NCBI GenBank assembly: GCA_004369045.1
Contig: ML213503.1
Span: forward strand, 3,141,697-3,205,696
Length of the DNA: 64,000 nucleotides
Direction: 5' to 3'
From: Heliocybe sulcata
Taxonomy: Eukaryota > Basidiomycota > Agaricomycetes > Gloeophyllales > Gloeophyllaceae
The notes under the pieces are model-generated. The model was not told the DNA's origin. It was given only the letters and a program-made list of their open reading frames with translations, and made no database searches. Made by a program: the position numbers and the translations under genes. Position 1 is the stretch's first letter. Each line of letters opens with the position of its first letter. This document shows, piece by piece, positions 24,994 to 50,625 of this stretch.

Positions 24994-27565
24994 CTATGAT
25001 AGTTGATACGAGTCTTCCACAAACCGTAGAGGATTAGTCCTCATCGACCTCGCTACAGAACTCTTGAACGGAAAATTGCGAGTTGCGCCCCCCTGCATCT
25101 GTCTCTCAACGCTGAGGGCACTCTGATAAAATTCCAGCACCCGGGGATGAGCCATGACACTGCGTGCGGGTCAACCACAGCTTCATACGGACGCAGGAGG
25201 AACGGACCTGGATGGTTCAAAATTGAGTACTTGCAGGGTCTTCATGCTGGTTGCCCGCGAAAGCGCGACATATGCTTTGGTATCCAAGACTTATTGGTTA
25301 CCCTATGAATAAGTTCAAGCCGTATAACGTACCCTGTCCGTATTCAAATGCTTGACCAAGGTCTACGCGCACCCGCTCCAGCGTCTGCCCTTGAGACCTG
25401 TGCACACTCATTGCCCAAGCGCATATAAGAGGAACCTGCCGGCTGAGAGTTTAATCATGCTCAGGAGCAACGTGCAAATCACAAACCTGTCGCCTTGTCG
25501 CTTCCGCTTCGCCTTTGAAATTGTTGACATTGAATTCAGCAGGCGTGCAAAGCATAGTTCTGCCATTAGTGAATTTGACAAGTGGCCACAGCGTATCGTC
25601 CTGCAGCATAGCGTGCCACTGTGGCCTCTCTTTATCCAGGAGTTCACCGTACAGTACTGTTCTGTCTTTCGCATGCCCGATTTCCAAATCGGAAATCATC
25701 TCCCCCCATGCTTGCCGAACCGTCATAAAGTCCACCACAAGACCCTGGGAGCCGTTCACCAGGTCCGCCCCAGGAACATTCTACGACGAGTCATCGGGTG
25801 CTTCAACTCCCGCAGGAAGGCTACACACCTTGATAAGCATCACCTGTGCTCCGGCCTGTCCAAGGTATGAGCAACTGAGTTATCGACTGTGAGGATAGAG
25901 TACCTTTAGTACGACCTCCTGCTGAGCGACGAGACGTCCAAGAGCTCTTTCCATAGCCTCCAAGCTGATTTTGTAACCTTTGTTGCCGTCCTGGCGAGCG
26001 TCAACTGCGAGATACCTCATTTCGGATGTCGGAAGTGCAGTTAGACGGTTGTGGTTGGCTATCTCGACGTCTCTGCGTAGCGGATAGCTTTGAACGTGAC
26101 AGAGACGTTAGCAAAAAATTGATCATTGGACGAAGGAGATGAATGTACAGTTCTGTAGGCTCGATACCGTCAGTATACGTGACGGGTCGGCTCAGCTGAC
26201 GGAGCTCATCGACTATCTCTTCTGTAACTTTTCCGATACGTAACGTATTGAGTATATCGACGAAGTCTGGATGGCAGGTGCCAAATCAGTACCGCATATG
26301 AGGGTCAGAGAGATCACGCGCACGTTGATCTCGCTGTCGGAAGACCTTGGTCAATACGAATGGCCGACGTATGCATTGCTTCCAGGCCAGGGACTCGAAT
26401 GCAAATACAGCAGGGATTATGTCATCATCTTCTCCGCGTCCCGGAACGGGAGGTAACTGGAAGAAATCTCCGGAGAGCACTAGCTGTTCTTATTTTAGGA
26501 GTTAAAATATCAGGCAAAGCCAGCAGTTAATGGCCTACCTGAATCCCCCCAAACGATAGGTCCTTTCGTCTTCGCAGCACGCGAGCTATATGGTCCTTAG
26601 TGGAGGACCCACGAGATATCATTATACCATATTGCAGAAGGTAACCATGGCGTCTTACGAGCTTGTCCAACAACGTCCCATCGATCATAGAGACTGAGGA
26701 AACGCAGCATGAGAAATAACACGGTACGCTGAGGCCGAGATAACGAACTTTCATCCACTATTAATGTTCGCACGTTTTGCCATCTCTCCAATGGACTGGG
26801 AGGATACTTTCGTTCGCCCTTGTGGGATGGAGATCTCAATGAAGAAGACTCAATATCAAAGGCAAGGCCCTCCGGATCCTCTTGTCCGAGACCGATACCC
26901 GCCCAGGAATGCAGCGTTTTTCCGCCAATATTGATGGAAGCAATGCCTGTCGCTGCGGTTACGGCGAGTTCCTCGCCTATGCGCATACCTTGACCCTTAC
27001 AGCTTCGAATAATCTCCCTTAATAGCACCGATTTACCGGTTCCTGCACATCAAATCAAATCACGGCTTTTTCATATTGCAGAGTATTGCACTCACCAGCG
27101 GATCCTGTGAAGAATACGCTCTCGCCCCGTTGTACCATCCTAAGGATTTGTCTCTGTTCCTCAGATAGAACTATGTTCTCCTCGGCGTCGTTGGAATCAA
27201 CGATGCCGGCTTCAGCATCCTTGCCGACCGCTTGTGTCGGTTCACTGGGCCATACTCCCGCCTGAGTTTTCGCGAGAAAGGTTTCGTACCCGATTCCAGG
27301 TATCCGATGGGTCTGGAGAACTTCATACGCATGGTATAAGGCGTCTCGACTGGGTACTCACGTGATCTTTGTGCTGCTGATTTATTCCATTTACCCGCCG
27401 TCACCGTCGAAGATATTACATTACACCAACCTGATCCCAAGAAGTGTATATCTGACGCCCGTCACGCCCGCGCTTTACAGCATAGTACCTGGGATGTCTC
27501 AAACAGCGCTGAGATGTGTGTAGCAAACGTGCTGCCTCGTGTATGTTTATGTCGAATCTCAGCAT
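24994..27565 (-). CDS. PIF1-family DNA helicase, copy A, mitochondrial-type presequence plus eroded hybrid-binding domain
   Basis: An ATG at 27565 opens [20 protein letters not shown], an amphipathic, hydroxylated presequence. It joins [20 protein letters not shown], the first half of an RNase H1-type hybrid-binding domain. The second half ([18 protein letters not shown]) has lost most consensus. The helicase core is open: [16 protein letters not shown], Walker A FTGSAG/TGKS split by an intron, [62 protein letters not shown], and [17 protein letters not shown], where R replaces the lysine found in B-D. After [15 protein letters not shown] the frame departs from copy D and runs into unique flank, stopping at 24994. 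PIF1 helicases unwind DNA 5' to 3' and resolve G-quadruplexes and R-loops in nucleus and mitochondria. No internal stop disrupts the core. Expression is unknown. Confidence 0.75.
26185..26416. repeat. Tract identical between PIF1 copies A and B (A side)
   Basis: These 232 bp match 29328-29559 base for base, including an intron, whereas sequence on both sides of the tract differs at many positions. This suggests recent gene conversion. Confidence 0.85.
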
Positions 27566-28239
27566 ATGTAAGCGCAGAGAAATGGAGGTCCGCGTCTCGT
27601 CACCGGATTCTGCAAGTCACGTCCGTGGCTGTGCAAAGTCCGTCGAAGCTTGAGCGTGCGCGTGAGCGTGAGCGCTTGATCAAGCCACGCTCCGCTGCGA
27701 CTTGTACAGTGAGTCTATTACAAGGTAAGGCGCGCCTATGCGTTAGATTTAGCTCGAGTGTGATGTAGCTGTGCCTCTATGTAACCAGAGCGCGGTTCGC
27801 TTGCATTGTTCGACGTACGCGTATTTTGTTATAGAGTAAGTAAATGTAATAAGATCGAGTAGCTCGGCATTAATCTTCTCACTGACCAACGGCTATCAGG
27901 GGACTCTCATATGTGTTCTGCTGTAGAAGTGAAGTGAACATGGAGCCAAGGATTTCGTCTGGGTCATATTATCACTTATAATCGTTATAAGTAGGTTATA
28001 TGCATTAGATGTAGCACCTTGTACTATAATCGGTGATCGACAGCGGCATTCGCGGGATAGTGGGCGTCGTAGTAGTCCCTGAAAACTGCCTGTGACGAGA
28101 ATGACCAGCACTGTCGATGTACTAGGGTAGAAAGCTATGGTGCATCAATAAACGTCGGCTTGAGTCTCCTAGAAATTGCAAGGGCCTTCTCCTCAATCCG
28201 CTCTTGAGCGGAATCGTTCGAGTTGCACAGTTGCACCTC
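27566..28239. repeat. Spacer between PIF1 copies A and B, with a relic PIF1 3' end and a repeat shared with copy C
   Basis: Two parts are visible. Positions 27789-27868 match 47941-48020, which covers the last codons and 3' flank of copy D, so this is a leftover PIF1 gene end. Positions about 27889-28180 match about 44108-44390 downstream of copy C, starting near ggctatc and ggggactctcat and containing tttcgtctgggtcatat. The shared block interrupts what in copy D is a continuous last exon. No other gene is seen. Confidence 0.7.
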
Positions 28240-30743
28240 CTACATTCCGCCCTCGACAGTGAGGGCACTCTGATAAAATTTCAGCACCCGGGGATGAGCC
28301 ATGACACTGCGTTCGGGTCAGCGACATCTTAATACGGACCCAAGAAGAACGGACCTGGATGGTTCAAAATTGAGTACTTGCAGGGTCTTCATGTTGGTTG
28401 CTCGCGAAAGCGCGACATATGCTTTGGTATCCAGGACTTACTGGTAATCCTATGAAAAGTTAAAGCTGTATAACGTACCCTGTCCGTACTCAAACGCTCG
28501 ACCAAGGTCTATGCGCACCCGCTGCAGCGTCTGCCCTTGAGATTTGTGCACACTCATTGCCCAAGCGCATATGAGAGGAACCTGCCGGCTCGGAGTTAAC
28601 CATGCACAACGCCAACGTGGTGATCACGAACTTGTCGCCTCGTCGCCTCTGCTTCGCCTCTGAAATTGTTAACACTGAATTCAGCAGGTGTGCAAAGCAT
28701 AGCTCTGCCATTAGTGAACTTGACAAGTGGCCACAGCGTATCGTCCCGCAGCATATTGGCCCCCTGTGGCTTCTTTTCGTCCAGGAAGTCACCGTACAGT
28801 ACTGTTTTGTCTTCTGCCTGTCCGATCACCAAGACGGTAATCCCTCCTTCCCGAGCATTCCGGACCGTCATGAAGTCTAACACCAGACCTTGGGAGCCAT
28901 TCACCAGGCCCGCTCCGGGAACGTTCTATGACGAGTCATTGAGAGCTTCAACGCCCACAGGAAGGCTACACACCTTGATAAGCATCACCTGTGCTCCGGC
29001 CTGTCCAAGGTATGAGGAACTGAGTTGTGGACTGTGGTATAGAGTACCTTCAGTACGACCTCCTGCTGAGCGATGAGCCGTCCAAGGGCTCTCTCCATAT
29101 CCTCCAAGCTGATTTTGTAACCGTTGTCGTCGCTTTCGCGAGCTTCAATCGCGAGGTACCTACGTTCAGGTGTCCGAAGTGCAGTTAGACGGTTGTGGTT
29201 GGCTATCTCGACGTCTCTGCGTAGCGGATAACTTGAACGTGACAGAGACGTTAGCAAAGACCTTAGCGTCTGATGAAGGAATCAAATGTACAGTTCTGTA
29301 GGTTCGATACCGTCAGTGTACGTGACAGGTCGGCTCAGCTGACGGAGCTCATCGACTATCTCTTCTGTAACTTTTCCGATACGTAACGTATTGAGTATAT
29401 CGACGAAGTCTGGATGGCAGGTGCCAAATCAGTACCGCATATGAGGGTCAGAGAGATCACGCGCACGTTGATCTCGCTGTCGGAAGACCTTGGTCAATAC
29501 GAATGGCCGACGTATGCATTGCTTCCAGGCCAGGGACTCGAATGCAAATACAGCAGGGACCACGCCATCATTCTCTCCGCGTCCCGGGACGGGAGGTAGC
29601 TGGCAGAAATCTCCGGAGAGCACTAGCTGTTCTCATTAAGAGTCAAAATATCAGGCAAAGCAATGAGTTAATGGCCTACCTGAATGCCCCCAAACGGTAG
29701 ATGTTTGCGTTTTCGCAGGACGCGAGCGATGAGGTCCTAAGTCGAGGCCCCATGAGATATCAGTATACTACATTGCAGGGGCGCCTTACGAGCTTGTCCA
29801 ACAACGTGCCGTCGATCATAGAGACTTTCAAAACACAGCATGAGAAATGGCACGGTACACTGAAGCCGATATAACTGACTTTCATCCACTATCAGTGTTC
29901 GCACTGTTTTCCATCTCTCCCATGGACTGAGAGGACGCTTTCGTTTACCGTCGCGCGATCGACGTCTCTTTGAAGAAGACACAATATCCAAGAGAAGATC
30001 CTTTGTCTCCTCTTGTCCAAGACCGACACCCGCCCAGGAATGCAGCGTTTTTCCGCCAATATTGATGGAAGCAATGCCTGTCGCTGCGGTTACGGCGAGT
30101 TCCTCGCCTATGCTCATACCTCGACCCTCACAGCTTCGAATAATCTCCCTTAATAGCACCGATTTACCAGTTCCTGCACATCAAATCAAATCACGGCTTT
30201 TTCATATTGCAGAGTATTACGCTCACCAGCGGATCCTGTGAAGAATACGCTCCGGCCCTCTTGTACCATCCTAAGAATCTGTCTCTGTTCATCAGATAGA
30301 ACTATGTTCCCCTCAGCGTCGTCGGAACCAATGGTGCGGGCTTCAGCAGCCTTGTTGTCATGGACAGTGCCGTGCTGGACCGTATGGGTAGGTTCTTCCG
30401 TTTGAGCTTTCGCGACAGAATTTTTATGCCCGATTCCAGGTGTCGGGTGGATCTAGAGAACTTCATACGCATGGTATAAGGCGTCTCGACCGAGGACTCA
30501 CGTGATCTTTGTGCTGCTGATTTAGTGACGAAGATTTTGCACTGACCTGGTGGATAGTCCACATAAGCTTTATCTATATGGCTCCGGCTTGGGAGACGGG
30601 AACAATGAACCTACCCGCTGATGAGCGTATATCTGAAACCCTTTATGCCTGCGTTTTACAGCATAGTCCTTGGGCAACGAACGGTACTGAGATGTGTGTA
30701 GCGAACGTGCTGCCTCGCGTATGTTCCCGTTGAGTCTCAGCAT
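28240..30743 (-). CDS. PIF1-family DNA helicase, copy B
   Basis: The ATG at 30743 opens [20 protein letters not shown], a presequence nearly the same as in A and C. The hybrid-binding half-domain is the most eroded of the four ([18 protein letters not shown], then [18 protein letters not shown]). The helicase core keeps its motifs: Walker A split by an intron after [26 protein letters not shown], the DES/SMIDG motif II spliced with a gtcagt donor, [71 protein letters not shown] and SVHKSQGQT. It stops soon after [14 protein letters not shown] at 28240, so it lacks the acidic tail of D. It sits in tandem with A (about 0.7 kb apart). It could be a functional organellar helicase or a decaying paralogue. 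Confidence 0.72.
29328..29559. repeat. Tract identical between PIF1 copies A and B (B side)
   Basis: Partner of 26185-26416 and identical over 232 bp. Confidence 0.85.
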
Positions 30744-31054
30744 AGTCAAGCGCAGAGGACTGGAGGTCCGTTACAAGTCGCGTCCCTGGCTGTCCGTCAG
30801 ACTATAATTCAGCCACGCCTCAGATGTGGTTATAACCAGGGTATACCAATAAATATTTACTAATGTCGATACCGCATTCCGCGGATTTTGAGTAGCTTGG
30901 AAAGTAATCTCATTAATCGTCAAACAACTTTAAGAGTAGCAAACCAATCGCGTCCCGATTCTGAAGGCAATGATGCGTTGCACGGCACGTGGTGAGATTT
31001 AAAGTAGTTTGTAGTTTGCAGCGCTCTTCCCCGTCGTCCATTACCAACTTTTCC
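30744..31054. other. Divergent region between PIF1 copy B and the CBP3 gene, with a PIF1 3'-end relic
   Basis: The segment around 30872-30894 (ccgcattccgcgg, then gagtagcttgg) resembles the 3' flank and last codons of copy D and of the A/B spacer. This implies that a further PIF1 copy once lay upstream of B. The remaining 150 bp should include the CBP3 promoter. Confidence 0.5.
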
Positions 31055-32348
31055 ATGTATCGTCGGGTGCTGCTCAACGTCTCTGCCTTGAGGCCCGGTC
31101 AAGCTGGAAGAACGACGAACGTCCAGCGTCTCGCCCTTCGTGCAGCCAGTCAGGCTGCCGCCGCGTCGCCAACGAAAACGGAGCAGCCCAACGCTTCCCT
31201 TGCCTCTCCCCCTCAGCAGACATGGCTCACGAAGTATCTCAAGGAGCATCCGGCTGCTATGAACGCGTTTATGGGAGTCAGTAGACTCCTAGGATACGGC
31301 AGTCCCAAGCAGCTGGCGAACCGGCGTGCCATGGCTCTTTACCAGGAGCTCTGTGTCAATAAGGCTGACGAGGAGATACAGTTCTGGCAGCAAGGTGGGC
31401 ATACTTTCGCATACAGTATCGTCAAAGGCTTTGTGTAGGGTCTCGCCCTCGGGTACATGCATACATCCGTCCTGGAGCTATGTGTTCTCTTAGTCTCGAG
31501 TACCTTCTGCTGACTGGTCGCTCGCTTCTCTTCGCTCTCTGTGTGCTACGCTAGAATGCGACCTTCCTCCTACTTTGCAGTCCTGGTTCAACATCACGAA
31601 CTTGCACGTCTGGCTTCTCACCGTCCGCCTGCGCGCCCTACCGCCTCCGCACGGCACCAATCACATACAAGGCCTCGTTGATATCTTCTTCATGGATGTG
31701 GAGGACCGCATTCGCGCGATCCTGCAGCCGAAAACCTTTGAAAAGTCCCAGCGAGAGCCGCCCGTGTCCGCCTTCTACCCCAACCGCCGACGCGACGACC
31801 CGCCTGAAGTTGGAGTGACCGAAAACTCGACGGGCAACTCTGGGAGGAAGAACGCGCCCGAGACCTTGATTACGAGGCACATGAAGATCTTCCGCGAGCA
31901 GTACGCCGGCCTCGGGATGGCGATGGACTTGGGGCTGGTCAAGGGCGACGCGGAGCTCGCAGGCGCGATATGGCGGAACTTCCTGGGTGCGCGCGGAGCG
32001 AGAGGCATTGTGTATGAGGAGGATCACGACCCGCTGGGCCCTCAGACCGCCTTCCGCCGCTCAGTCAATCCCCTGGGCAGCGACGTGAAGAAGATTTCGG
32101 GAGACCTGGCGAAGTTGGAGGCCGCAGAGACGCAGGATGATTTGTCTGGCGTGCATGATTATGCGCCGGCGGACGCGGACAAGTACCTGGCGTACCCGGG
32201 GCTGATGAAGACGCTGGCGACGTATGTGAGGAAGGAGCTTGTGCGCCTTGGCAAGTTAAGCGATGCGCAGGTTATGGGACCGACGCAGCCCGGGAAGGAG
32301 TTCGAGGGTGTGCGGCCGTTGAAGTTCGGGCATGTCAAGGAGCATTGA
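31055..32348 (+). CDS. CBP3/UQCC1-type cytochrome bc1 assembly chaperone
   Basis: The start MYRRVLLNVSALRPGQAGRT is an arginine-rich mitochondrial presequence. After WLTKYLKEHPAAMNAFMGV and LYQELCVNKADEEIQFWQQ, an intron joins ECDLPPTLQSWFNITNLHVW. The rest contains VDIFFMDVEDRIRAIL, ITRHMKIFREQYAGLGMAMD, ELAGAIWRNFLGARG and LMKTLATYVRKELVRLGKLS. This is the ubiquinol-cytochrome c chaperone domain. In yeast, Cbp3 with Cbp6 binds newly made cytochrome b at the mitoribosome and helps assemble complex III. Only one intron is needed. It ends FGHVKEH-stop at 32348. Confidence 0.92.
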
Positions 32349-32573
32349 AGGATCCCTCATGTATCATGTTATGGAAGTATAATAAAAGTATAGCCAGATT
32401 GTAATCATAAACCTCCACTCTCGTAATCAGGTTCGTGGTTAGTACATATCGCGAGACTGGGGATAGTCAGAGTGTGCCGACGAGATTCTTACAGATTAAA
32501 TTCCTGTATGTATTAAAAGGCTTTATCGCATTGATGATTAGGATATATATAGCACAAACATCACCTGTTCCAT

Positions 32574-32657
32574 GCCCGCCTAGCTCAATCGGATAGAGCG
32601 TCAGACTCTTATGACTAGGCGATCTGAAGGCTGCGAGTTCGACCCTCGCGGTGGGCT
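32574..32657 (+). tRNA. tRNA-Lys (anticodon CTT) with a 10-nt intron
   Basis: Acceptor arms GCCCGCC and GGTGGGC pair with one G-T. The D arm is GCTC..GAGC, the anticodon stem is TCAGA/TCTGA, and the T arm is GCGAG-TTCGACC-CTCGC. The 17 nt between the anticodon stem halves reduce to the loop CT-CTT-A-A after removal of about 10 nt (TGACTAGGCG) at the canonical site one base 3' of the anticodon. The position after the acceptor (discriminator) reads T in the gene. Confidence 0.92.
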
Positions 32658-32872
32658 AGAATCTTTTATGTTCTGTGTCATTTTCTCAATGACACAATAC
32701 TCTTTGCTATCGTCATTCTCGGAAAGTCTTTTTGGGTCTGCTGAACCAAGAGGCTGTCGATGAATGCTTCTGGAGAGTAAGTGGTGATTAGATGCCTATT
32801 AGATGTGAGATACATATGCAAAGCAAGCCCAAAAATGTCTATGGAACCTAACCATCCGCGTCCTTTAGCCGT

Positions 32873-33990
32873 TTATACGTACTTCCCAAACAAGGGAATC
32901 AACGATTGCGCCATTGTATAACTGAACACCAACTTCGGACCCACAACCAAGATCTTTGGGGTCAGTCCCTTGAACAGCGCAAATGGTCCCTCGTTCTTCA
33001 GGAGCTCCTTGATGACTGTAACACCAGAAACCTTGTTTTCGAAGTTTGCGTTCTGGATGCGGGTTTTGACGACGTCGAGGGGCGCGGCGACGGTGATCGA
33101 GGCGACGGCGCCGGCGATGGAGGCGATGAAGTTCTGGGCCCAGGTGGCTTTTGAGTAGTCTTTGACGCCGAGGATGTATTCTTTTGTTACGGCGGAGGCG
33201 CCGAACAGCTGGGATATGGCCGTTATAATGGACACTGATGATCTGAGATAGTTAGACTTACTGAGAAACTACCTGGTGCGTTCCGGGCCATTGTCCAGCC
33301 CCAGCCGCGGTAGAGGGTCGTGCCTTCTTCTAGGAAAATTCGAACGACGCCGCGCCCTCGGAACGCTTCGGGGTTGACCTGTCTTTTGATTTTGAGGGCG
33401 TCTAATGGTAATAAGACCTGCACAGAATGATCAGCTTGCCATATCTCCCAACGCGGAGACTGTGCCCAAACTCACCACTTCGCCGATACCCGTCAAACTT
33501 CCTGCAGTCGCCTGCATCATCATCTTGCCCTTCCGCTCGCCGAAGGTGTTCGTGAACTCGGTCTTGTAGTGTCGCGTGATGAGGTCATTGAACCACGGCT
33601 GCCCGCCGAACTTGTATATCCGCTGGGAGACTTTGTAGCCTGCTGCATACCCGAGGCCGGGGAAGAGGGAGAGGAAGCGCTTGCCGAGGGTGGCGGTGGC
33701 TTTCTCGCGGAAGATGATGGAGGAGAGGGTGGAGAATGAGACCTGTCATGGGGAAATGAGCGGCCTAGGTATAGTTCGTCAGGATGCGATAACGTACTTT
33801 GTTTTTGTTACTCATTAACCTTTTGGCGATCGTGTCCACGGGGTGGAAGATCAGAAGTTCGGCGACACCTTCAGTACCGGTCAATAATACTTACACCTCT
33901 GATACCAGATCGGTACTCACCAGCAGTGCCGGATCCGAGGATACGGGCGGTGCCCGACTCGCTGCCTTTTCCGCTCATGTGAGGAGCCAT
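32873..33990 (-). CDS. GGC1: Mitochondrial GTP/GDP carrier (Ggc1-type)
   Basis: Minus-strand exons give MAPHMSGKGSESGTARILGS, AELLIFHPVDTIAKRLMSN (first carrier signature), LFPGLGYAAGYKVSQRIYKF, TGIGEVVLLPLDALKIKRQV (second PxD signature), YRGWGWTMARNAPGSFS, YSKATWAQNFIASIAGAVAS, TVAAPLDVVKTRIQNANFEN (third signature) and LFKGLTPKILVVGPKLVFSY. The wording of these motifs is closest to yeast Ggc1, which exchanges GTP and GDP across the inner mitochondrial membrane and affects mitochondrial iron balance. Six transmembrane helices are expected from the three-repeat carrier fold. Length of about 300 residues is normal. It ends FGKYV-stop at 32873. The start could be MSGKGS, four codons in. Confidence 0.9.
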
Positions 33991-34340
33991 GCCTAGTCGT
34001 ACAGTGGGGACGAAGGGGAGAGAGGGAGAGCAGAGCAGACGCAGCACAGGCTTGAAGCAGAGCAGATAGACGCCGCTTCCCAAATGCCTTTAGCAGTGCC
34101 GCTCAAAATTTAGGCGGCCAATCAGGACACGCATCCCGTGACCGCGTCGCGTTTCTGTCTCAACTCCCATGACGAGTCTCGCCGGCCATCGATTTCATGA
34201 ACATCGTCTCTCGGCGTTATCCAAGAGTATACAGCAAGATGCAAGATGCGTGGTGATATACTACTAGGGTGCTCTTCTGGCTGTATACTATCGAGCTTCG
34301 CAATGAACTGGCCGCGTGGTCACCCTGCCTAGCCCCCTCT

Positions 34341-35276
34341 TCACGGAGTCCACTCATGGGCCTTTATCCAACCCCCGACATCGATGGTCTGGATCCCCCT
34401 GTGAACGTTGAACGTCTTTCCTTTATCCCAGCTTACACCTCGGCCCTCTGCAAACACGACCCGATACTTCCTAAGCGGATTCTCCGGGTCCTTCCTCAGT
34501 TCCTCCTTCAGCTCCTCGACGGTCCACACCTCCCTTTCTACAGTCCTCCTACTCCCCACTGCACTTTCGACTAGTTCCGCGAATTTTGTATAACTGATGG
34601 TCTCTCCGGCGGTATACACCACTCCTTTGACGTTCTCGTCCACCACCACCTCCGCCGTTAGTCTGCCAATGTCTTCAGCTGCCGTAACCGTCACCCTATT
34701 GTCCCATCCTCCAAGACCTCTCACCACCACTTCTCCGCCCTCTCGCTTTTCAATCAACCCAAAGCTCTCTTCGAACAAAAAGCTCGTGAACATCCCCGTA
34801 CTGACGATGACCCACTGTGTCCTATCCTGGCCCCTCAAGATATCCCTCACATCCAGCTGCTCATCGAAGAGATCCAACGCGCTCCCTCGTCCGATAACAT
34901 CATAATCCACGCCGAATTGCCATGGGAAGTACCTCTTCACGCCCGCTTCCAATACGGCCTTGGCCAGTTTGACTTGCGTCCCCCGCCCCGCTGTGAAGCC
35001 TGTGCAACTGAGAACGACGTCGTATTTGCCGTTCCTGAAGGTGTCGGCCAGCGACTTCCCGGTGGCCGAAGCGATGTCTACTGAGATGATGTGAAGCTCG
35101 TGTGGGCTCGCGAGAGAGCGGTAATGCTGGGTCTTCGCGCTGTCCTGGGCTGTCTGGGGTCGGAGACCTAGGGAGAGCTGGACGTCCTTTGAGTCGTATC
35201 TCTCGGCCAAGGCGGCTAGGACAGCATTTCCTAGCTCTCCTGCTCCGAGTATGAGGATTGATGATTGCTTCGACAT
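34341..35276 (-). CDS. CipA-like NmrA/isoflavone-reductase-family NAD(P)-binding protein
   Basis: A single exon starts MSKQSSILILGAGELGNAVL, a Rossmann GxGxxG nucleotide site. It continues with YDVVLSCTGFTAGRGTQVKL, KRYFPWQFGVDYDVIGRGSA, LFDEQLDVRDILRGQ, VIVSTGMFTSFLFEESFGLI and NRVTVTAAEDIGRLTAEVVV. This is the CipA subgroup of NmrA-like/isoflavone-reductase-like proteins, atypical short-chain dehydrogenases common as multigene families in fungi. The substrate is not known. An intronless 311-residue gene is unusual among these neighbours and fits a family that duplicates often. An ACG codon and a GTG codon precede the ATG, and I chose the first ATG at 35276. Confidence 0.85.
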   Translation of the reverse strand: MSKQSSILILGAGELGNAVLAALAERYDSKDVQLSLGLRPQTAQDSAKTQHYRSLASPHELHIISVDIASATGKSLADTFRNGKYDVVLSCTGFTAGRGTQVKLAKAVLEAGVKRYFPWQFGVDYDVIGRGSALDLFDEQLDVRDILRGQDRTQWVIVSTGMFTSFLFEESFGLIEKREGGEVVVRGLGGWDNRVTVTAAEDIGRLTAEVVVDENVKGVVYTAGETISYTKFAELVESAVGSRRTVEREVWTVEELKEELRKDPENPLRKYRVVFAEGRGVSWDKGKTFNVHRGIQTIDVGGWIKAHEWTP

Positions 35277-41147: not shown

Positions 41148-44079
41148 ATGAACAGCTCGTCGGACACGGTAGCGACGACGAGTGGTCGTCCCTCAACATC
41201 ATCGTCGGACGGCGGCCACCAGACAGGTCCAATACCGCTGTTCGATCAGCACCTCAGAATCTTGACAGATTCCTATATCCAGTTCTTCCAAGAGCGGTGA
41301 GTATTGCAGCCTAATTGCCGGTTGTATGCACTCGTATTGATCAAATGCACACAGCAAACGGATAGAAGAAGTCTAGTGAGTGGAGGAGAATGTGAAAAGC
41401 ACCGGGAAGAGACTGAACGACACGGTCAGTGTTGAGTCACTCTTGAAGCTCCACAAGAAGGCGAAGACGATCGATACCTACTTGGACGGACGGGCGGAGT
41501 CTAGTACAACGCGCAGTGCATGGTCGGAAGTGAGAGAGAATGTTGAGCGAGGTACGTCTGATGTACCATTCCAGCGATATCTCATATCTCATACGAATCG
41601 TAGAGGCCCAGACGCGACAAGCGTTCCTTGCGACATTATCTGTGGACGTCTTGAATCCTCTTTCTGCTCTCAGAGTGTGTTTCTCAATCACTCCCCCACT
41701 GAACGTACCACCGACTTCATGTTCAGGATACTCAAGACCGGTCTAGGAAGCGTATCAAGGAGGACATCAAAGAGTCCACCAATGCGCACGTAGAATATGC
41801 TGAGAACACAGTACCCAAGTTGAAGAGGAATTACTTGAAGAAGTGCCAGGACGTGGAGGTGAGTCCGGTCATGGTGTGCGAGTGACGTATTCAAACAGCG
41901 GCCATCAAGGATTATAAACTAGCAGCTTCTTCACCTTCGCAACATTCGAGTTCACAGTCGGATGGTCCTCCAATGAAATACCCTCTCAGCCCTACTAGCA
42001 AGTCTCTCGTCACGGCACCCCAACCGCTCCGTCCCGTAGAGAGAAGACCATCTGGTGGACCGGGCGGTACAGGACGGAACCGCTCGCCTTCTTCTTCTAC
42101 TGCCTTGCAAGATCTTGCCCATCAAGGTCAGCTACGAGCTGGGTTCGACTGTTCGTGACTGACGATGCGGCTACAGGAAAGCGCCAACTGAATCAACTGA
42201 TGGGCTTCCTGGAGAAGAGGGACACGGTCAGGGATGGTCTGGGAGTACGATCAGATGCTGCTCTGCGAGTTGTCCGCACCAAAAGAGAGTCGGAGGAAGC
42301 AGGTTCGCCCCATCGCTCGATTATATGAGGAATTTGCTGATAGTCCTCTGATTGCAGACAAGGAGTATCGAAAAGCCGTGCATTGGCTCGAAACTCTGCG
42401 GTTACGGCGGATGAAGATTCTCGAAGCAGGATATAAGGTGAACTTCACGGTTGTCCTGTTAAGAGTCATGACTGACATGGCATAGAGCCTCGAAATGTTT
42501 GTATTCGAGTGTGCTGAGACAGTGAAGAACGTACTGGACAAGTACATCGACAACATGATGTAGGGATCTCATTCATCTTCCGCTGCACAGGCTGACGGTG
42601 TGCATACGTTTCCAGCGCGACCACGTCAACGCAGACGCAGTTATCCAAACACGCGTTTTCGGTAGTGCAGATGATCTCACCACAAATGGACGTATCCGTC
42701 GTGTCATCGAGAATGTCTCGTTCGCTCTCATTTGCGACTCCACCGCCGGTGCTGTACTACAATTATGAAGTGGGCGAGTGCAAGGACCTGGTGTTCGGCG
42801 TCAGTCTGGTGGACTATGCCACTGCGAGAGGATTGGGCGAGGGTGAGACTCCCAGGATCATTGAGTTGTGTATTCAGGAAGTGGATAAGAAGGGTTTGGA
42901 GGTTGAGGGCATATATCGGGTGAGGCGATATCCCAATTAGCGCTTGAATAGCTGCTGATATGTTTGTAGGTATCCGGACGGCATGCTGTGGTCCAAGCGG
43001 TGAGTCATGAGTTTTACTTCGTTTGAGAGACCGCGACTGATGGGCATCATCGCAATAGCTGCAGCGCAAATTTGAACGGAATGAGCAGACGTTCAAGTTC
43101 AACTCCGTAGCAGACGATGTATTCGCCGTTTCCTCACTCCTCAAAGTACGCTTTACCTTTATTTGTCTGGATTCACTCCTGACAGTGAAGTCAGCTGTAC
43201 TTGCGAGAACTGCCCGAACCGCTATTCCGATTCCCCTTGCAAGAGAGGATCCAACATTCCGAAGACTTGGGTGAGTCCTTCCCGCATGAGCAGTTGAAGA
43301 ACTCTGGACCAACCACGTGTCTAGAGGATCACAAATCCAGTAATTTTGCGCTCTTACGATCTAAGATGCGCCGCTTGCCCCCTGTGCATCAAGCGACACT
43401 GAGAGCAGTTGTGGAACACCTGGCACGCGTCTGCGCACTTAGCGAGAAAAATAAGATGGATGCGAAGAACCTGGCCATTGTGTTCGGCACAGTCATCTTC
43501 GGCGAAGACGAAATGTCGAAGGGAGCTGACTTGCTCAGTCTTCAATCCATGAAGGTTCTTAAATCTCGTGCCGGCGTTTGGGCGTTCTAGACTGACAATA
43601 CGTAGGACTCGCTTATGGAGGATTTGATCCTCAATGCTCAAACTCTCTTCGATGATCGCGCTGGTCCGCAGGAGACGCCCCTTCCTGCTGCACCAGTCGG
43701 TGAATCAGGCCTCCCATTCCCCTTGGGCTCATCCCACACCAAGGTCGCGAATGTCCCCGTGACTCCAACAGCGTCTCTCCCGCCACCGAATGACTTCATC
43801 CCTGAATTGCCTCCGAGACCTGCCGATAGCATCCATCGTTCTTCCCGGGCGAACTACGTGACAACGACAAGGTCGGAGGGAGGGCCGAAGAGCCCCAGAC
43901 TTTCGGGACGTCCTCGATACCAAGCAGCAGAAGCGCCCGAAGTCTGGAGGGCTCCTGAAGAGATCAGCGATGATGACTTCTTCGAGGCGCGCGGACGGCG
44001 GCGCTCTCTTGGCAGGAAACGCGTCTCCGCACCTCCCTCGATCCGCGCCCCTTCCAACTCAGGTTTTTCACTAAGGTAA
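41148..44079 (+). CDS. F-BAR and RhoGAP domain protein (Rgd1-like)
   Basis: The N-terminus MNSSSDTVATTSGRPSTSSS leads into an F-BAR half: FDQHLRILTDSYIQFFQERK, EEVYVESLLKLHKKAKTIDT, RQAFLATLSVDVLNPLSALR, and a coiled coil KRIKEDIKESTNAHVEYAEN with LKRNYLKKCQDVEDYKLA. The RhoGAP domain has VFGVSLVDYATARG, GLEVEGIYRVSGRHAVVQAL (arginine finger in YRVSG), LYLRELPEPLFRFPLQERIQ and KNLAIVFGTVIFG. A basic, proline-rich tail ends SNSGFSLR. In yeasts Rgd1 is a GAP for Rho3/Rho4 at sites of polarised growth and cytokinesis. An intron (41373-41426) must be removed after EEVY, because reading through loses the F-BAR alignment. PIF1 copy C and its flank start only 30 bp past the stop. Confidence 0.88.
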
Positions 44080-44107
44080 CGCGGTCTCCGCATGACCTTT
44101 ATGCAAT

Positions 44108-44465
44108 CGCTATCCGGGGACTCTCATGTTATGTTCTCGTCTCTGTGTTTCTGCTGTAACAGTGAAGTCATTATGTAGCCAAGAATTTCGTCTGGGTCAT
44201 ATCACTTATAATCTTTGTAGGTAGGTTATGCATTAGATGTAGTATCTTGTATCATAATCGGTAATCGATAGCGGCACCCTCAGGATAGTGGGCGTCCTAG
44301 TAGTCCATGAACACTGCCAGCAACGAGAATGACCAGCACCGTCGATGTACATGGTGCATCAATGAAGGTTAGCTTGAGTCTTCAAGAAATCGCAAGGGCT
44401 TCCTCCTCGTCCATCTCGCTACAGAACTCCTGAGCGAAATAATCCGGGTTGCACAATTGCACCTC
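44108..44465. repeat. PIF1 downstream repeat, copy C side
   Basis: This stretch, between the RhoGAP stop and copy C, matches 27889-28239 between copies A and B with scattered substitutions. Part of it (about 44370-44465) still reads, in a second frame, QEFCSEMDEEEALAIS, equivalent to the acidic tail [14 protein letters not shown] of copy D. Confidence 0.7.
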
Positions 44466-46959
44466 TTACATTTGGCTCTCAACGCCGACGGCATTACGAT
44501 AAAATTCCAACGCCCGGGGATGGGCCATGGCACTGCGTGCAGGTCCGTCATTCAGATCCCACTAAAACGGATACAAGAGGAACGGACCTGGATGGTTCAA
44601 AATTGAGCACTTCCAAGGTTTCCATGCTGGTTGCCCGCGAAAGCGCGACATATGCTTCGGGATCCGAAACTGATCAAGAATCTTGTGAAACAATTCAAGC
44701 TATAAAACGTACCCTGTCCGTACTCAAATGCTCGACCAAGGTCTATGCGCACCCGCTCTATCGTCTGCCCTTGAGACTTGTGCACGCTCATTGCCCAAGC
44801 GCATATGAGAGGAATCTGCCGGCTGAGAGTTAATCATGCGCAATGACAACGTGGGGATTACGAACTTGTCGCCTCGTCGCCTCTGCTTCGCCTCTGAAAT
44901 TGTTAACAGTGAACTCAGCAGGCGTGCAGAGTATAGTTCTGCCATTAGTGAACTTGACGAGTGGCCACAGCTTATCGTCCCCCTGTGGTCTCGCTTCATC
45001 CGAGGATTCACCGTATTTTACTGTTCTGTCTTCCGCGCGCCCGACTTGCAAAACTGTGATCTTTTCTTCCGATGCTTCCTGACTCGTCATGAAGCCTACC
45101 ACCAGACCTTGGGAGCCATTCACCAGGTCCACATCGGGAACATTCTACGACAAGTCATTGAGAGCTTCGATACCCGCAGGAAGGCCACATACCTTGATGA
45201 GCATCACCTGTGCTCCGACCTGTTTAAGGTATGAGCAACTGCGTTATGAAGTATGGGTATAGCTAGTACCTTCAGTACCACCTCCTGTTGCGCTAGGAGC
45301 CGTCCAAGAATTGTCTCCAATGCATCCAAGCTGGTTTCGTCACCGTTGGCGTTGCATCCGGGAACGTCGCTCGCCAGATACCTATGTTCGGGTGTCGTAA
45401 GTGCAGATAGACGGCTCTCGTTGGCTCTGTCCACGTCTTGGCGCAGCGGATAGCTTAGAATGTGACAGAGCCGTCAGCATAGGCGTAAACATTGAACGGA
45501 GGAGACGCATGTACAGTTCTGTGGGCTCGATACCGTCGGTGTACGTGACGGGCCGGCTCAGCTGTCGAAACTCGTCGACCATCTCTTCTGTAACTTCTCC
45601 GATACGCAACATGTTGAGCATATCGACAAATCCTTGAGGACAAGTGCCAGATCAGTATCGTATACGAGGGGTCAAAGACGTCGCCCACACGTTGATCTTG
45701 CTGTCGGAAGACCTTGGTCAATACGAAAGGCCGAGGTATGCATTGCTTCCAGGCCAAGGACTCGAATGCAAAAAGAGCCTGGACCTTGTCATTATCCTCT
45801 CCGCGTTGTGGAATGGGAGGTAATTGACAGAAATCGCCGGAGAGTACAAGCTGTACTCATTAAGAATCAAAATATCAGGCAAAACCGGCAGTTGATGGCC
45901 TACCTGTATCCCCCCAAACGATAGGTCATTTTGTCGCACAATGCGAGCGATGTGCTCCTTAAGTGAAGGACCCACGACATATCAGTATGCCATATTGAAA
46001 GAAGGTAAGTATGGTGCCTTACGAGCTTGTCCAATAACTTCCCGTCAATCATGGAGACTTTCAAAACACAGCATGGGAAATAGTATGGTAAACTAAAGCC
46101 GAGATAACTGACTTTCATCCACTATCAGTGTTTGCACTTTCTTCCATCTCCACGCAGGGTAAGAGGGATAAGGCTTCGGTTTACCGTCTTGCGATCGATA
46201 TGTCAGCGGAGAAGACCTATTCTTCAAAAGAACCTCTGGCTCCTCTCGTCCAAGACCGATACCCGCCCAGGAATGCAGCGTTTTTCCGCCAATATTTACG
46301 GATGCAATGCCAGTTGCTGCGGTCACGGCGAGTTGCTTGCCTATGCGCATACCTTGCCTCTTACAACTTCGAATAATCTCCCTTAATAGCACCGATTTAC
46401 CAGTTCCTGCACATCAAATCAAATCACAGCGTCTCGTACAGTAGATCATTTTTACTGACCAGCGGATCCTGTGAAGAATACGCTCTGGCCCTCTTGTACC
46501 ATTTTAAGAATCTGTCTCTGTTCATCAGATAGAACTATGTTCCCCTCAGCGTCGTCGGAACCAACGGTGCCGGCTTCATCATCCTTGTCTCCATCGACAG
46601 TTTTGTTCTGGACCGCCTGGGTCGGTTCACTGAGCCATGCTTCCGCCTGACTTTCGGTGATGAAAGCCTTGTACCGGGCTCCAGATATTCGTTCGACCTG
46701 GAGGACTTCATACGCATAGTATAAGGCGTCTCAACCGCTTACTCACGTTTTCTTTGCACTGTCAATTTATTACGTTTACCGCCGTTCATACTACCGCTTA
46801 GAATGACGAAGATATTACACTAACCTCGTCCCAAGAAGTGTATATCTGAGGCCCTTCACGCCCGCACCTTACAGCATAGTACTTGGAAGGCTTCAAACGA
46901 GGCTGAGATGTGTGTAGCAAACGTGCCGCCTCGCGTATGTTCCTGTTGAGTCTCAGCAT
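44466..46959 (-). CDS. PIF1-family DNA helicase, copy C, presequence plus well-kept hybrid-binding domain
   Basis: The ATG at 46959 gives [20 protein letters not shown], a strong mitochondrial-type presequence with arginines and an HTSQ processing-like site. The RNase H1-type hybrid-binding domain follows in two exons: [20 protein letters not shown] and then [20 protein letters not shown]. It keeps the aromatic and lysine pattern (GARYKAF) used by such domains to hold RNA:DNA duplexes. Helicase motifs are all present: [111 protein letters not shown] and [18 protein letters not shown]. The frame stops at 44466 shortly after [14 protein letters not shown]. Among the three left-hand copies this one is closest to copy D. 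Confidence 0.78.
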
Positions 46960-48001
46960 ATGCAAGCGCAGAGGACTGGAGGCGGCACCGGTCAGGCTCG
47001 GTCGGCAGTGTAGACGCGTTCGTGGCTGTGCATTATGTACGTCGGACTATACTTGAGCCATGCCTAGCTCGAGTCTGATATAGCCGGGCGGTTTATCACA
47101 CCGGAGGGAACCGAATATACGTGATCGCTGTAAATGCCGACCTAAATTGAGATGTGGGCTTTGATATATAATATTCACCGGAAATGGCAGGTTATTTTTT
47201 ATATATGTTATATTGTGTATAGGAATTTATATATATGAAATACATACGAAGCTACACTATGTTGGAATATGTTGAAGTAAATTATAAATATTGTCCGATG
47301 TGTAGTTATAAGTATAATTCTTATTTGTATTGAGGTTTTTGATCGACAACAATTTCGAATATTTCATTGCACTGGGATTATCGCCCATATCTGGTATATC
47401 TTCCGAGATATGCTTGATGTGTAAAATTTCAAATTTACTTCAGGATACCCCAACAGACCCGAATGGGAACCCATATATGGAATATATCGCCATGACAAAT
47501 GTTGGTCCCCGGTTTTGTTTTGACATTTGTCCCACTGGTGCTGGAAGAAATATTAGCCATCATCATTTCGAAGCAGAAAATTTGAAATGTCCAACAAACT
47601 TCTACTGTATATGGATATGTTTTACTATATATGTAATACAGACAGAACTACGTGAGAAGCTAATATTTAAAATTTTTACTTTCTGCCGTAGCTTCGGCCA
47701 AATATGAGATCACCATTCACCTTAACCTTTGCACGTGAATAACAAATATGCCTTGCAAGTCATAGAATCACACAAATTGTAGATATATGTTCTCATTTTA
47801 ACGGTATGTGATATATCAAATAGATAATCATGTATCCAATTGCACGGATATTTCAACCGTGACTTCCCGATATTGGGCCACATTTACAGGGCAGTCATAT
47901 ATTCGGTTACTGGAAGTGTCAGAGGACACCGGTGTCGGTACCGCAGTTCGCTTGCACGATTTGACGCACGCGCATTTTTCTAATGGGTAGGTAAATGTAA
48001 T
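46960..48001. other. Spacer between PIF1 copies C and D, largely an AT-rich inserted block
   Basis: The left 145 bp are the 5' flank of copy C. A strongly AT-rich block (47105-47925) follows, and then about 75 bp of copy D 3' flank shared with the A/B spacer. Confidence 0.6.
47105..47925. mobile_element. AT-rich 821-bp insertion bounded by ACACCGG direct repeats (class unknown)
   Basis: Both flanks align with the spacer upstream of copy A, where no such block exists, so it was inserted. Identical 7-bp repeats ACACCGG lie at 47098-47104 and 47926-47932. The block is much richer in A and T than the rest of the window. It contains an inverted pair (gacaaatgt 47494-47502 and acatttgtc 47523-47531) and another pair around atttcaaattt. 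The only long open frame (about 47330-47707) lacks an ATG at its start and matches no family I recognise. It could be a non-autonomous transposon or transferred organellar DNA. Confidence 0.45.
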
Positions 48002-50625
48002 TTAAGATCGAGTAGCTTGGTAATAAGCCGCGATAGCCTCGTCATTGTCCATCTCGTCAAACAAGTCTTCAGCAGAATCGTGGTCAGAGTCGTCGGTATC
48101 GAGGACACTGCGATACCATTTTAGCACGCGAGGATGGGCCATAACCCTACATGTCACCCGGTCACCCCAGCCCTTCCTGAAAGGGGAGAGTGGGACGTAC
48201 CTCTCTGGATGGAAATTGATCACTTGCAGAGTCTCCATATTTGTTGCGCGTGAAAGAGCCACGTATGCTGCGAGATGCACAACTTACCATGTAACCAGTA
48301 GGCAGCCAAGTTCACATGACGTACCCTGTCCTTTCTCAAATGTGCGACCAAGGTCTACGCGCACCCGCTGCAGAGTCTGTCCCTGCGACTTGTGGACACT
48401 CAGGGCCCATGCACATATAAGTGGAATCTGCCCGACGGAGGTTAAGTAGTCGTTCTGTATTCATGTTCGTCACTTACTTGCTCTCTTTTGGCCTCCATGC
48501 CTCCAGCGGAATTGTTGACCGTGAATTCGGCAGGCACACAAACCATAGTGTCGCCGTTCGTGAACCTGACAACAGGCCACAATCTGTCTAGCCCCATAGC
48601 CATTACCTCAGCTGGAATTTTGTTGCGCTTTTCCGGATTGTCCTCGGGTTCGGTTTGCGCGACTTGCATTCGTCTCTCCATCGCTTCTTGAGACGTGACA
48701 AAGTCTATTACTTGACCAAGGGAGCCGTTCACTAGGCGGCCTTGGACAAGATTCTGTAGGATGTCACCGATGGTCTTTACAGCTGGTACGATGACGACGT
48801 ACCTTGATGAGCATCACCTGGGCCCCTACCTATCTAAAGTATCAGCGATTAAAATATCTATGAAATATATCGAACACCTTCAGCACGATTTCTTTCTGAG
48901 CAACCAATCGATCCAGAAGTTTCCCCATGGCCTCTATACTGATTCTCTTGTCTTCGTCGTCATGCCCAGGCGTATCCATTGCGAGATACGTATGTGGGGG
49001 AGCGGGGAGTGCAAGTAGACGGCTGCGGTTAGCTTCGGCTACTTCGTGACGTGTTGGAAAGCTTGTGATACAATAGAACCATCAGCAGAAATAAGAATGG
49101 GTAACGCGAGCAATCGCACAGCTCTGTGGGCTCTATTCCGTCGGTGTACGTAACTGGTCGACTTAACGATCGGAATACGTTGACTATCTGTTCGGTGAGC
49201 TGCCCGACACGCACTGCGTTAAGCATGTCCACGAAATCTTCGCGGCAAATGTAATATCAGCATGTGCATGAGCAGAGCGCGAGATAGCACGCACGCTGAT
49301 CTTGCTGCCGGAAGACCTTGGTCAGGACTACAGGACGAGCTATGCATTGCTTCCATGCTACAGATTCAAACGCAAACTGTGTAGAGCTCAGCTTCCCGCG
49401 ACCGGGCACAGGAGGTAATTGACAGAAATCCCCGGAGATTACTAGCTGTCGGCGACCTAAGTAAGTAAAGGATAGGGATGATTGCTGGTGATGTACCTGA
49501 ATTCCCGCGAATGGTCGATCACGCCCACATACGGTGCGAGCAACGTAGTCCTTGAGTTGAACGACCCAGCCAGCATCAGTACAGAATAGTAGCAAGCGGA
49601 TTATCCAGTCAGCGGGCTTACCAGCTTGTCGAACAATTTCCCGTCGATCATAGAGACTAACAGAGATACTGGCGTCAGCAACAGGGTACAGCATAAATTA
49701 GATGGACTGGCTTTCATCCACTACTAGTGTTTGCACGGTCCGCCATCTATTTCGGGGTCCGTGCCTCGGTGAATGTATAATCCTTTTGGCGAGGTCCGTT
49801 GCCTTGTCCTCCCCCTGACCGATACCAGCCCACGAGTGTATTGTCATGCCACCGATGTTGACGGAAGCGATGCCTGTTGAAGCGGTTACAGCGAGTTCCT
49901 TGCCTTTGCGCATTCCGCGGCTTTCGCAACTTCGGATGATCTCTCTTAAGAGTACAGATTTGCCAGTACCTATGCATTTCTCCAAATCAGAACGTCTCAT
50001 GCTGTAAGAGTATGTGCTCACCAGCAGATCCTGTGAAGAATACATTCTTGCCCTGCTGGACTAAATTGAGGATTGCCTCCTGTTCATCAGACAAAACTAT
50101 CTTGTTCGGCGCTTCTTCGAAAGGGAGAAAGTCTGCTTCGTGATCCCAATCTGGTCTCTTCTCTAATATGGAAGGACCCGGTGTATCCGGTCTCTTCAGA
50201 TCGTCTGGAGACTGAATCACAGAAGTGGCACTAAGTCCGGTTGGTAAGGGCCAGCCGTCAGAATCAGGCATGGTTCTCCAGTACATAGGAACCACATCTA
50301 CGAAGTTGTGATATTTAGAGGGACTAGTGTAGTTCAAAGCAACATACTTTTGACGGGTTCGTTGAGCCAAGCCTCGGCCTGACTTCTCGTCGTGAAACTC
50401 TTGTGGACAGCGCCGGGTATCCGTTGGGTCTATATAGATTATTCATACACATAAAAATCATTGTATAAATCCTGATGCCACTCACATTGTCCTTGCACTA
50501 TGGATGCGCAAAATCATGGATGACCCCACCGCTTCAATGAACAATGCACAGACCTCATCCCAAGAAGAATATATTTTAGGCCCTTCGCGGCCAATCTTCA
50601 CCGCGTAGTACTTCACTTTGGGCAT
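48002..50625 (-). CDS. PIF1-family DNA helicase, copy D, hybrid-binding domain at the very N-terminus
   Basis: Starting at ATG 50625, [20 protein letters not shown] plus [20 protein letters not shown] forms an RNase H1-type hybrid-binding domain in three exons. A linker ([20 protein letters not shown]) follows. The PIF1 core has [62 protein letters not shown] (across a GC-AG intron), [68 protein letters not shown] and [20 protein letters not shown]. The tail is acidic ([20 protein letters not shown]) and ends at TAA 48002-48004. No presequence is in frame: a stop precedes the ATG by 16 codons. This looks like an intact gene and probably the parent of A-C. Activity on R-loops is inference from the domain pair. 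Confidence 0.85.

What the first reader, a model, noticed from the sequence alone, without database searches (positions are those of the whole stretch)
24994..50625. Four linked PIF1 helicase genes fused to an RNase H1-type hybrid-binding domain
Copies A-D carry, at or near the N-terminus, KYYAVK.GREGP.IY.SWDE followed by a GARYKAF or AVHKSF block. This is the pattern of the RNase H1 N-terminal domain that binds RNA:DNA duplexes, joined to a complete PIF1 core. Canonical yeast and human PIF1 lack it, as far as I know. A PIF1 motor with its own R-loop-binding module, amplified as two tandem pairs around 13 kb of unrelated genes, is a plausible uncharacterised R-loop or mitochondrial-genome maintenance system.
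Basis: partly seen in the sequence, partly recalled or inferred. Interest (0 to 1): 0.75.

Follow-up and report, generated by a model that had tools for sequence, protein, structure and literature searches.

The report
PIF1 helicase fused to hybrid-binding domain
A fungus carries four neighbouring genes for a DNA-unwinding motor (PIF1), at least two with an intact domain that normally grips RNA:DNA hybrids, and some bacteria have joined the same two parts separately, which suggests a motor built to clear RNA stuck to DNA.

Summary
The finding is real, with corrections. Splicing gives four open genes on the minus strand (A 27565-24994, B 30743-28240, C 46959-44466, D 50625-48002), each with a complete PIF1 core that groups with a known Pif1. 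The RNase H1-type hybrid-binding domain (HBD, PF01693) is strong in C (5e-17) and D (3e-17), weak in A (1e-7), unrecognisable in B. One uninterrupted frame of C carries half the HBD plus the start of the motor, so the fusion does not rest on splicing. The HBD is conserved between C and D (dN/dS about 0.09) but drifts in A-B, A-C and B-C, while the motor stays constrained. Two other Pif1-like genes of the genome show no detectable HBD (weak test); its 11 intronless PIF1 loci look like helitrons (10 of 11 beside a Rep domain). New here: bacteria related to an Erysipelotrichaceae MAG carry the same HBD-PIF1 order in one frame (9 of 315 genomes of the order) on a separate PIF1 branch, so the pairing arose at least twice. 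Best reading: the HBD tethers PIF1 to RNA:DNA hybrids and adds the reach that yeast Pif1 lacks; C may be mitochondrial. Function, splicing and localisation are untested. Nine full-text searches (capped listings) showed no such report.

The parts
24994..27565 (-). Gene A: HBD-PIF1, 14 exons, 622 aa, weakened HBD, C-terminal extension
   Evidence: splice model; last codon and stop read; PF01693 9.6e-8, PF05970 1.6e-40
27247..27490 (-). HBD of A (spread over exons 1-3; ends counted from the exon model)
   Evidence: HBD against core, A-C Fisher p 0.012
28240..30743 (-). Gene B: PIF1, 14 exons, 590 aa, HBD decayed (tryptophan lost); starts of exons 1-3 placed by hand
   Evidence: PF05970 5.4e-40, no PF01693
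44466..46959 (-). Gene C: HBD-PIF1, 14 exons, 590 aa, presequence-like N-terminus
   Evidence: PF01693 5e-17, PF05970 9.5e-41
46632..46884 (-). HBD of C (end of exon 1, 12-nt exon 2, start of exon 3; ends counted from the exon model)
   Evidence: PDB 1qhk 3.6e-8 and 3bsu 5.5e-8
46460..46697 (-). Exon 3 of C: second half of HBD plus start of PIF1 core (into the Walker A motif) in one open frame
   Evidence: protein 3: PF01693 21.7 bits in the unspliced frame 46730-46452, which ends ...FFTGSAGQ
48002..50625 (-). Gene D: HBD-PIF1, 15 exons, 619 aa, longer linker, most diverged copy; start and linker placed by hand
   Evidence: PF01693 3.1e-17, PF05970 4.6e-43
50364..50613 (-). HBD of D (exons 1-3; ends counted from the exon model)
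   Evidence: 33 of 46 residues identical to C
27999..28122 (.). 3' flank of B, 86% identical to 44227-44350 behind C
   Evidence: the repeat finder family D16

Best explanation
Genes C and D encode a Pif1-family DNA helicase (5'-to-3' by family) whose N-terminal domain is an RNase H1-type hybrid-binding domain. SHOWN: the domain order, the joint frame in C, open frames, conservation of the HBD between C and D, grouping of the motor with a known Pif1, and a separate bacterial occurrence of the same order. INFERRED: the HBD holds the motor on RNA:DNA hybrids while Pif1, tracking on the DNA strand, strips the RNA. This would give it the hybrid preference and reach that yeast Pif1 gets only weakly, through a different N-terminal domain. 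INFERRED: C (perhaps A and B) is imported into mitochondria; D, which starts at the HBD, is not, or uses another start. A and B arose by later duplication and are losing the HBD while keeping the motor, so they work as ordinary Pif1 copies or are on the way out.
For: Domains in the spliced proteins. Half the HBD and the start of the motor in one unspliced frame of C. PIF1 core of D best matched by PDB chains named ATP-dependent DNA helicase PIF1 (8xak 7e-114, 5o6b 8.2e-114; that 5o6b is the yeast protein is recalled), against 1.8e-16 for Helraiser, a helitron protein. The Pif1 signature motif printed in PMC8998199 (passages) is present as [22 protein letters not shown] (C) and [22 protein letters not shown] (D). 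HBD dN/dS 0.093 for C-D against 0.188 for the core. In A-B, A-C and B-C the HBD has 25:5, 27:6 and 38:7 nonsynonymous to synonymous changes against 92:67, 146:104 and 149:92 in the core (p 0.0079, 0.012, 0.0034). Bacterial fusions in one reading frame in 9 of 315 genomes of the order (both domains confirmed in L169-L175 and in L195, L196), on PIF1 branches split from the fungal and known Pif1 rows at ultrafast bootstrap 100. Literature: yeast Pif1 unwinds only 15-20 bp of hybrid per binding and loses its enhanced hybrid activity without its N-terminal domain (PMC8998199, passages); limited processivity is the reason given why Pif1 does not help forks through co-directional R-loops alone (PMC8479836, passages); the conserved fly HBD gives tight hybrid binding (PMC7657459, passages).
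Against: No binding, unwinding, expression or localisation data. K60 of the human HBD is A in C and S in D, and K60 is one of the residues changed together in a non-binding mutant (PMC6868509, passages); 6 of 9 bacterial fusions also have S there. [quoted passage not shown] A and B keep the motor without a good HBD. Pairs with D show no HBD-core difference (A-D p 1, B-D p 0.21, C-D p 0.5), with synonymous sites near saturation, so the C-D ratio is approximate. Bacterial HBDs show higher dN/dS than their cores in six of six pairs compared (0.14-0.46 against 0.07-0.24). The N-terminal stretch of A-C has dN/dS 1.20, 0.83 and 1.21 (A-B, A-C, B-C), so a constrained presequence is not shown; the helical moment of D's start (0.52) is not clearly below those of A, B and C (0.59, 0.48, 0.63).
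Confidence: 0.6

Rival explanations
1. The HBD recognises RNA-containing duplexes other than R-loops: dsRNA, or RNA primers of replication intermediates, and places PIF1 at lagging-strand or mitochondrial primer sites.
For: Yeast HBD prefers dsRNA (PMC7657459, passages). In Trypanosoma brucei the mitochondrial PIF1 TbPIF5 acts in processing of minicircle Okazaki fragments (PMC2743194, title and start of abstract in the search listing).
Against: Human and fly HBDs prefer hybrid (passages). Nothing in the sequence separates primer from R-loop hybrids.
Confidence: 0.25
2. The HBD is a passenger: a promiscuous small domain caught by chance, with the helicase acting as ordinary Pif1.
For: HBDs are also joined to RNase HII, RnlA toxin domains and a second HBD in bacteria. 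B has lost its HBD and A's is weakened.
Against: Low dN/dS of the HBD between C and D, a separate bacterial fusion kept in 9 of 315 genomes, and W43 and K59 equivalents kept in C, D and 9 of 9 bacterial fusions.
Confidence: 0.12
3. The genes are decaying copies or transposon (helitron) helicases.
For: PIF1 domains are common in helitrons, and this genome holds 11 intronless PIF1 loci, 10 with PF14214 within about 3 kb. B has lost the HBD.
Against: No frameshift or internal stop in the four models with 13-14 introns; core dN/dS 0.19-0.46; core 24-26% identical to the helitron row L009 and 44.6-47.5% to the genes on C8 and C6; no PF14214 match in the window.
Confidence: 0.03

Closest known systems
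ScPif1 (Saccharomyces cerevisiae Pif1)
   Same: Complete Pif1 core, signature motif; works in nucleus and mitochondria; [quoted passage not shown]
   Different: No HBD is mentioned for it in the passages seen; here the N-terminal domain is a recognisable HBD
RNase H1 (PDB 1qhk, 3bsu, 6vrd, and the fungus's own gene at G000:C26:36950)
   Same: The HBD, at the N-terminus
   Different: RNase H1 cuts the RNA with a nuclease domain; no RNase H domain is among the families shown for A-D. In the fungus's own gene the first HBD intron sits inside the tryptophan codon; in A, C and D it lies two codons later
Bacterial HBD-PIF1 of L113 (Erysipelotrichaceae MAG) and relatives
   Same: Same two domains in the same order
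   Different: Separate PIF1 branch, one frame without introns, linker of about 20 residues in L113; found here
Helitron RepHel helicase
   Same: PF05970 domain
   Different: Rep domain PF14214 beside it, no introns in the domain, about 25% identity

Membership tests
Pif1 family helicase | PF05970 and Pif1 2B domain over cut-off | tested here: met
   4 of 4 proteins
Pif1 family helicase | Walker A GSAGTGKS and motif II DEIS | tested here: met
   4 of 4 spliced proteins; both motifs cross introns, so they depend on the splice models
Pif1 family helicase | Signature motif between motifs II and III | tested here: met
   Read in C and D against the motif printed in PMC8998199
Pif1 family helicase | Groups with ScPif1, apart from helitrons and bacterial PIF1 | tested here: met
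   Support 0.998; ultrafast bootstrap 100 against bacteria and phages (with the helitron row and vir_L106 dropped). Phage rows were 19 of 80 loci, picked by hand
Pif1 family helicase | 5'-to-3' unwinding, mitochondrial and nuclear location | not testable with these tools
   No assay; presequence judged by composition only
RNase H1-type HBD (PF01693) | Pfam score over 21 bits | tested here: met
   C 62.3, D 63.0, A 32.6; B fails
RNase H1-type HBD (PF01693) | Equivalents of W43, K59, K60 of the human HBD | tested here: inconclusive
   C and D keep W43 and K59, lack K60; A keeps W43 only; B has lost W43. Residue names from PMC6868509; placing them on the sequence is my count
RNase H1-type HBD (PF01693) | Binds RNA:DNA hybrid | not testable with these tools
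   No assay
RNase H1 | RNase H catalytic domain | tested here: not met
   PF00075 is not among the families shown for A-D at E 0.1 (for C 25 of 28 families were shown)
Helitron RepHel | PF14214 Rep domain beside the helicase | tested here: not met
   11 matches in the genome, none in the window

The most novel reading that the evidence does not exclude
HBD-PIF1 is a distinct, repeatedly evolved class of hybrid-tethered helicase: an 'RNA stripper' that pairs the RNase H1 grip with a Pif1 motor instead of a nuclease, in a fungus and in bacteria. In the fungus the family has split: C (mitochondrial) and D (elsewhere) keep the grip, while A and B are becoming plain motors.
Probability: 0.42. Interest if true: 0.72.

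Novelty: new variant of a known kind. Interest (0 to 1): 0.58.

Why it matters
Whether Pif1 removes the RNA of R-loops itself or only G-quadruplexes beside them is debated (PMC8998199 and PMC8479836, passages): yeast Pif1 is said to be too short-ranged on hybrids. A natural Pif1 with its own hybrid grip is a ready-made test: if the HBD lengthens hybrid unwinding, direct RNA stripping by Pif1-type motors is a real biological job. The bacterial one-frame version (522 aa) is a simple protein to study, and natural copies with a weakened or decayed HBD (A, B) serve as controls. At least two separate origins of the same pairing suggest function, not accident.

Tried and rejected
Helitron origin: rejected. 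Pseudogenes: rejected for the reading frames, though B's HBD has decayed. Fusion as a splicing artefact: rejected by the unspliced frame of C exon 3 and the bacterial one-frame fusion. Transfer of a whole HBD-PIF1 gene from bacteria to the fungus: not supported, the motors lie on separate branches. D's HBD is 62% identical to that of the bacterial fusion and 44% to the fungus's RNase H1, but the bacterial loci were found with patterns taken from C and D, so this similarity is biased and I give it no weight. HBD in the two other Pif1-like genes: spliced-alignment scores 63.7 and 58.0 lie within background (median 59, maximum 73), and no PF01693 match was found there. Both tests are weak: the HBD of the C4 gene scores only 69.4 in the first, and the second missed A; the N-terminal models of these genes are unreliable. 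Virus contigs: the first scan gave no relative; the second kept 80 of 97 PIF1 relatives, none of the 80 with an HBD by my own HBD profile. An upstream exon giving D a presequence: no in-frame join with an intron of usual length was found by eye; the script's own join gave no ATG start; not pursued. Literature: search (nine; listings only, and just 15 of 54, 15 of 447, 10 of 83 and 8 of 39 papers were listed) showed no HBD-PIF1 fusion. PMC4289320 (passages) reports a PF01693 gene inside a Pleurotus helitron, as a separate gene. PMC1950709 (passages) surveyed prokaryotic HBDs and names fusions to RNase HI and one resolvase. Database entries with this architecture may exist; I could not look.
Full report
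WHERE. The window is G000:C1:3141697-3205696 of a 31.6 Mb genome in 51 contigs.

OBSERVATION. Repeats of the four loci stand out at the DNA level. I spliced C by hand and then aligned C's protein to the other loci with a script that allows introns, frameshifts and stops. The final models give open proteins of 622, 590, 590 and 619 residues (A, B, C, D; A has 621, the last codon and the stop were read). A, B and C have 13 introns and D has 14; 52 of 53 are GT-AG and one in D is GC-AG. The starts of exons 1-3 of B, and the start and linker of D, were placed by hand because the script's own path there was poor. Exon 2 is only 12 nt in all four models.

DOMAINS. Pfam: PIF1 1.6e-40, 5.4e-40, 9.5e-41 and 4.6e-43 and the Pif1 2B domain over cut-off in A, B, C and D. 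PF01693 in A 9.6e-8, C 5e-17 and D 3.1e-17, none in B. PDB: the motor of D matches chains named PIF1 (8xak 7e-114, 5o6b 8.2e-114), and the HBD of C matches RNase H1 chains 1qhk (3.6e-8), 3bsu (5.5e-8) and 6vrd (1.3e-6). That 5o6b and 1qhk are yeast and 3bsu human is recalled. One unspliced frame of C (46730-46452) already carries half the HBD over the Pfam cut-off and runs into the motor, so the fusion does not depend on predicted splicing.

GENOME CONTEXT. PF01693 gave 5 matches in the genome: two pieces of one gene on C26 with what reads by eye as an RNase H continuation, C and D of the window, and a gene on C4 with a long low-complexity tail. A's HBD was missed there, being split by introns. 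PF05970 gave 23 matches: 11 intronless loci, 8 matches in the window, and two more intron-rich genes on C8 and C6 (2 matches each). PF14214, the helitron Rep domain, lies within about 3 kb of 10 of the 11 intronless loci (C5:305262 has none). The window genes are 44.6-47.5% identical in the core to the C8 and C6 genes and 24-26% to the helitron row L009. The C8 and C6 genes show no HBD above background, a weak test since the true HBD of the C4 gene scores 69.4, below the background maximum of 73.

EVOLUTION. The tree is ((A,B),C),D, so the 'two pairs' are not one duplicated pair. Pairwise dN/dS by a Nei-Gojobori script: core 0.41 (A-B), 0.38 (A-C), 0.46 (B-C), 0.21 (A-D), 0.19 (B-D), 0.19 (C-D). 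HBD: 0.093 (C-D), 0.11 (A-D), but 1.50 (A-B), 1.32 (A-C), 1.67 (B-C); B-D could not be computed because synonymous sites are saturated. HBD against core counts differ in A-B, A-C and B-C (p 0.0079, 0.012, 0.0034) and not in the pairs with D (A-D 1, B-D 0.21, C-D 0.5). The pairs are not independent, B's HBD alignment has gaps, and synonymous sites in pairs with D are near saturation. Reading: the HBD was present before the duplications, is kept in C and D, and decays in A and above all in B, where the tryptophan is gone.

A SECOND ORIGIN. A scan of prokaryote genomes with patterns from the HBDs of C and D returned 54 loci, all with an HBD frame by my own profile; in 1 of the 54 that frame also carries a PIF1 core: L113, an Erysipelotrichaceae MAG, 522 aa, PF01693 2.9e-21 and PF05970 1.9e-26, between frames that look like ordinary bacterial genes by eye. 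With that protein as query: 7 of 43 genomes of its family have a full-length match without internal stops and an eighth (G039) a broken one. In the order it is 9 of 315 (G001, G014, G022, G023, G038, G041, G042, G994, G1012), plus the broken one; five further matches in the order start at residue 62 or later, and I did not look for an HBD upstream of them. Samples: class 3 of 395, all three fusions already in the family; phylum 5 of 392, three of them those fusions; the phylum of L114's genome, 4 of 398, none of the four with an HBD. In these larger searches only the best few candidates per genome were scored, so counts are lower bounds. HBD and PIF1 profiles both match in all nine (L169-L175, L195 and L196). 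In the trees A-D sit with the Pif1 chain 5o6b and the two other fungal genes (support 0.998), and bacteria and phages are split from them at ultrafast bootstrap 100 (helitron row and vir_L106 dropped; phage rows were 19 of 80 loci, picked by hand, for). So the pairing arose at least twice. Within bacteria the fusions form a bootstrap-100 group that also holds two phage-contig PIF1s without HBD, so a loss or further gains are possible.

RESIDUES. Against the human HBD (W43, K59, K60 named in PMC6868509, passages): C and D keep W43 and K59 but have A or S at K60. All 9 bacterial fusions keep W43 and K59, and 3 of 9 keep K60. The fungus's own RNase H1 has H-Q-K at the F58-K59-K60 place, so variation here is seen in this lineage.

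MECHANISM. Yeast Pif1 unwinds 15-20 bp of hybrid per binding and needs its N-terminal domain for its enhanced hybrid activity (PMC8998199, passages). It does not by itself carry forks through co-directional R-loops (PMC8479836, passages). The conserved HBD binds hybrids tightly, and processivity has been proposed as its role, though removing it from fly RNase H1 had no major effect on an R-loop substrate (PMC7657459, passages). Joining the two would keep the motor on the hybrid it strips. C begins [26 protein letters not shown]: 7 basic and 1 acidic residue in 26, helical moment 0.63, like a mitochondrial presequence; A and B have 5 basic and 2 acidic. D begins at the HBD, with 6 basic, 3 acidic and moment 0.52, so the measure separates poorly, and the stretch shows dN/dS near 1 among A-C. 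These steps are inference.

NEIGHBOURS. Between B and C lie frames matching a ubiquinol-cytochrome c chaperone, a mitochondrial carrier, NmrA, a GH72 glucanosyltransferase, a zinc-knuckle protein and RhoGAP (of 10 frames given, 33431-33745 had no hit and the SUR7 match at 24060-24443 lies outside the gap).

VERDICT. A real domain fusion, with open genes in C and D, weakened in A and decayed in B. New variant of a known kind. The function is a strong, testable hypothesis.

Noticed in passing
L154, L161, L133 (bacterial loci): HBD in one frame with RnlA toxin domains; in L154 and L161 also with an RNase H domain between them. E. coli RnlB needs RNase HI to inhibit RnlA (PMC5308261, title in search listing), so a joined RNase H-RnlA protein is striking.
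   Followed up: no
L153 and L134: HBD joined to RNase HII (L153) and two HBDs in one 279-aa frame with no other Pfam hit at E 0.001 (L134).
   Followed up: no
window 26149-26483 and 29292-29626: A and B are 96% identical (323 of 335) over exon 7, intron 7 (57 of 57) and exon 8; other features range from 73 to 100%, most between 76 and 93%. This looks like a gene conversion tract.
   Followed up: partly
window 46758-46747, 27373-27362, 30513-30502, 50497-50486: A 12-nt exon inside the HBD is kept in all four gene models; skipping it would remove four residues in frame.
   Followed up: no
L030 (G000:C4:1555900): An HBD followed by a long low-complexity tail; its HBD intron sits in the tryptophan codon as in the fungus's RNase H1, unlike the PIF1 genes.
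   Followed up: no
window 46960-48000: AT-rich stretch between C and D (the 46001-48000 bin has GC 0.433 against 0.49-0.56 elsewhere), perhaps an insertion.
   Followed up: no
window 50720-50630: An open frame in another phase just upstream of D (MDARSTCRHARLLMARLYTSLGF, read) resembles a mitochondrial presequence but does not join D in frame by a usual intron.
   Followed up: partly
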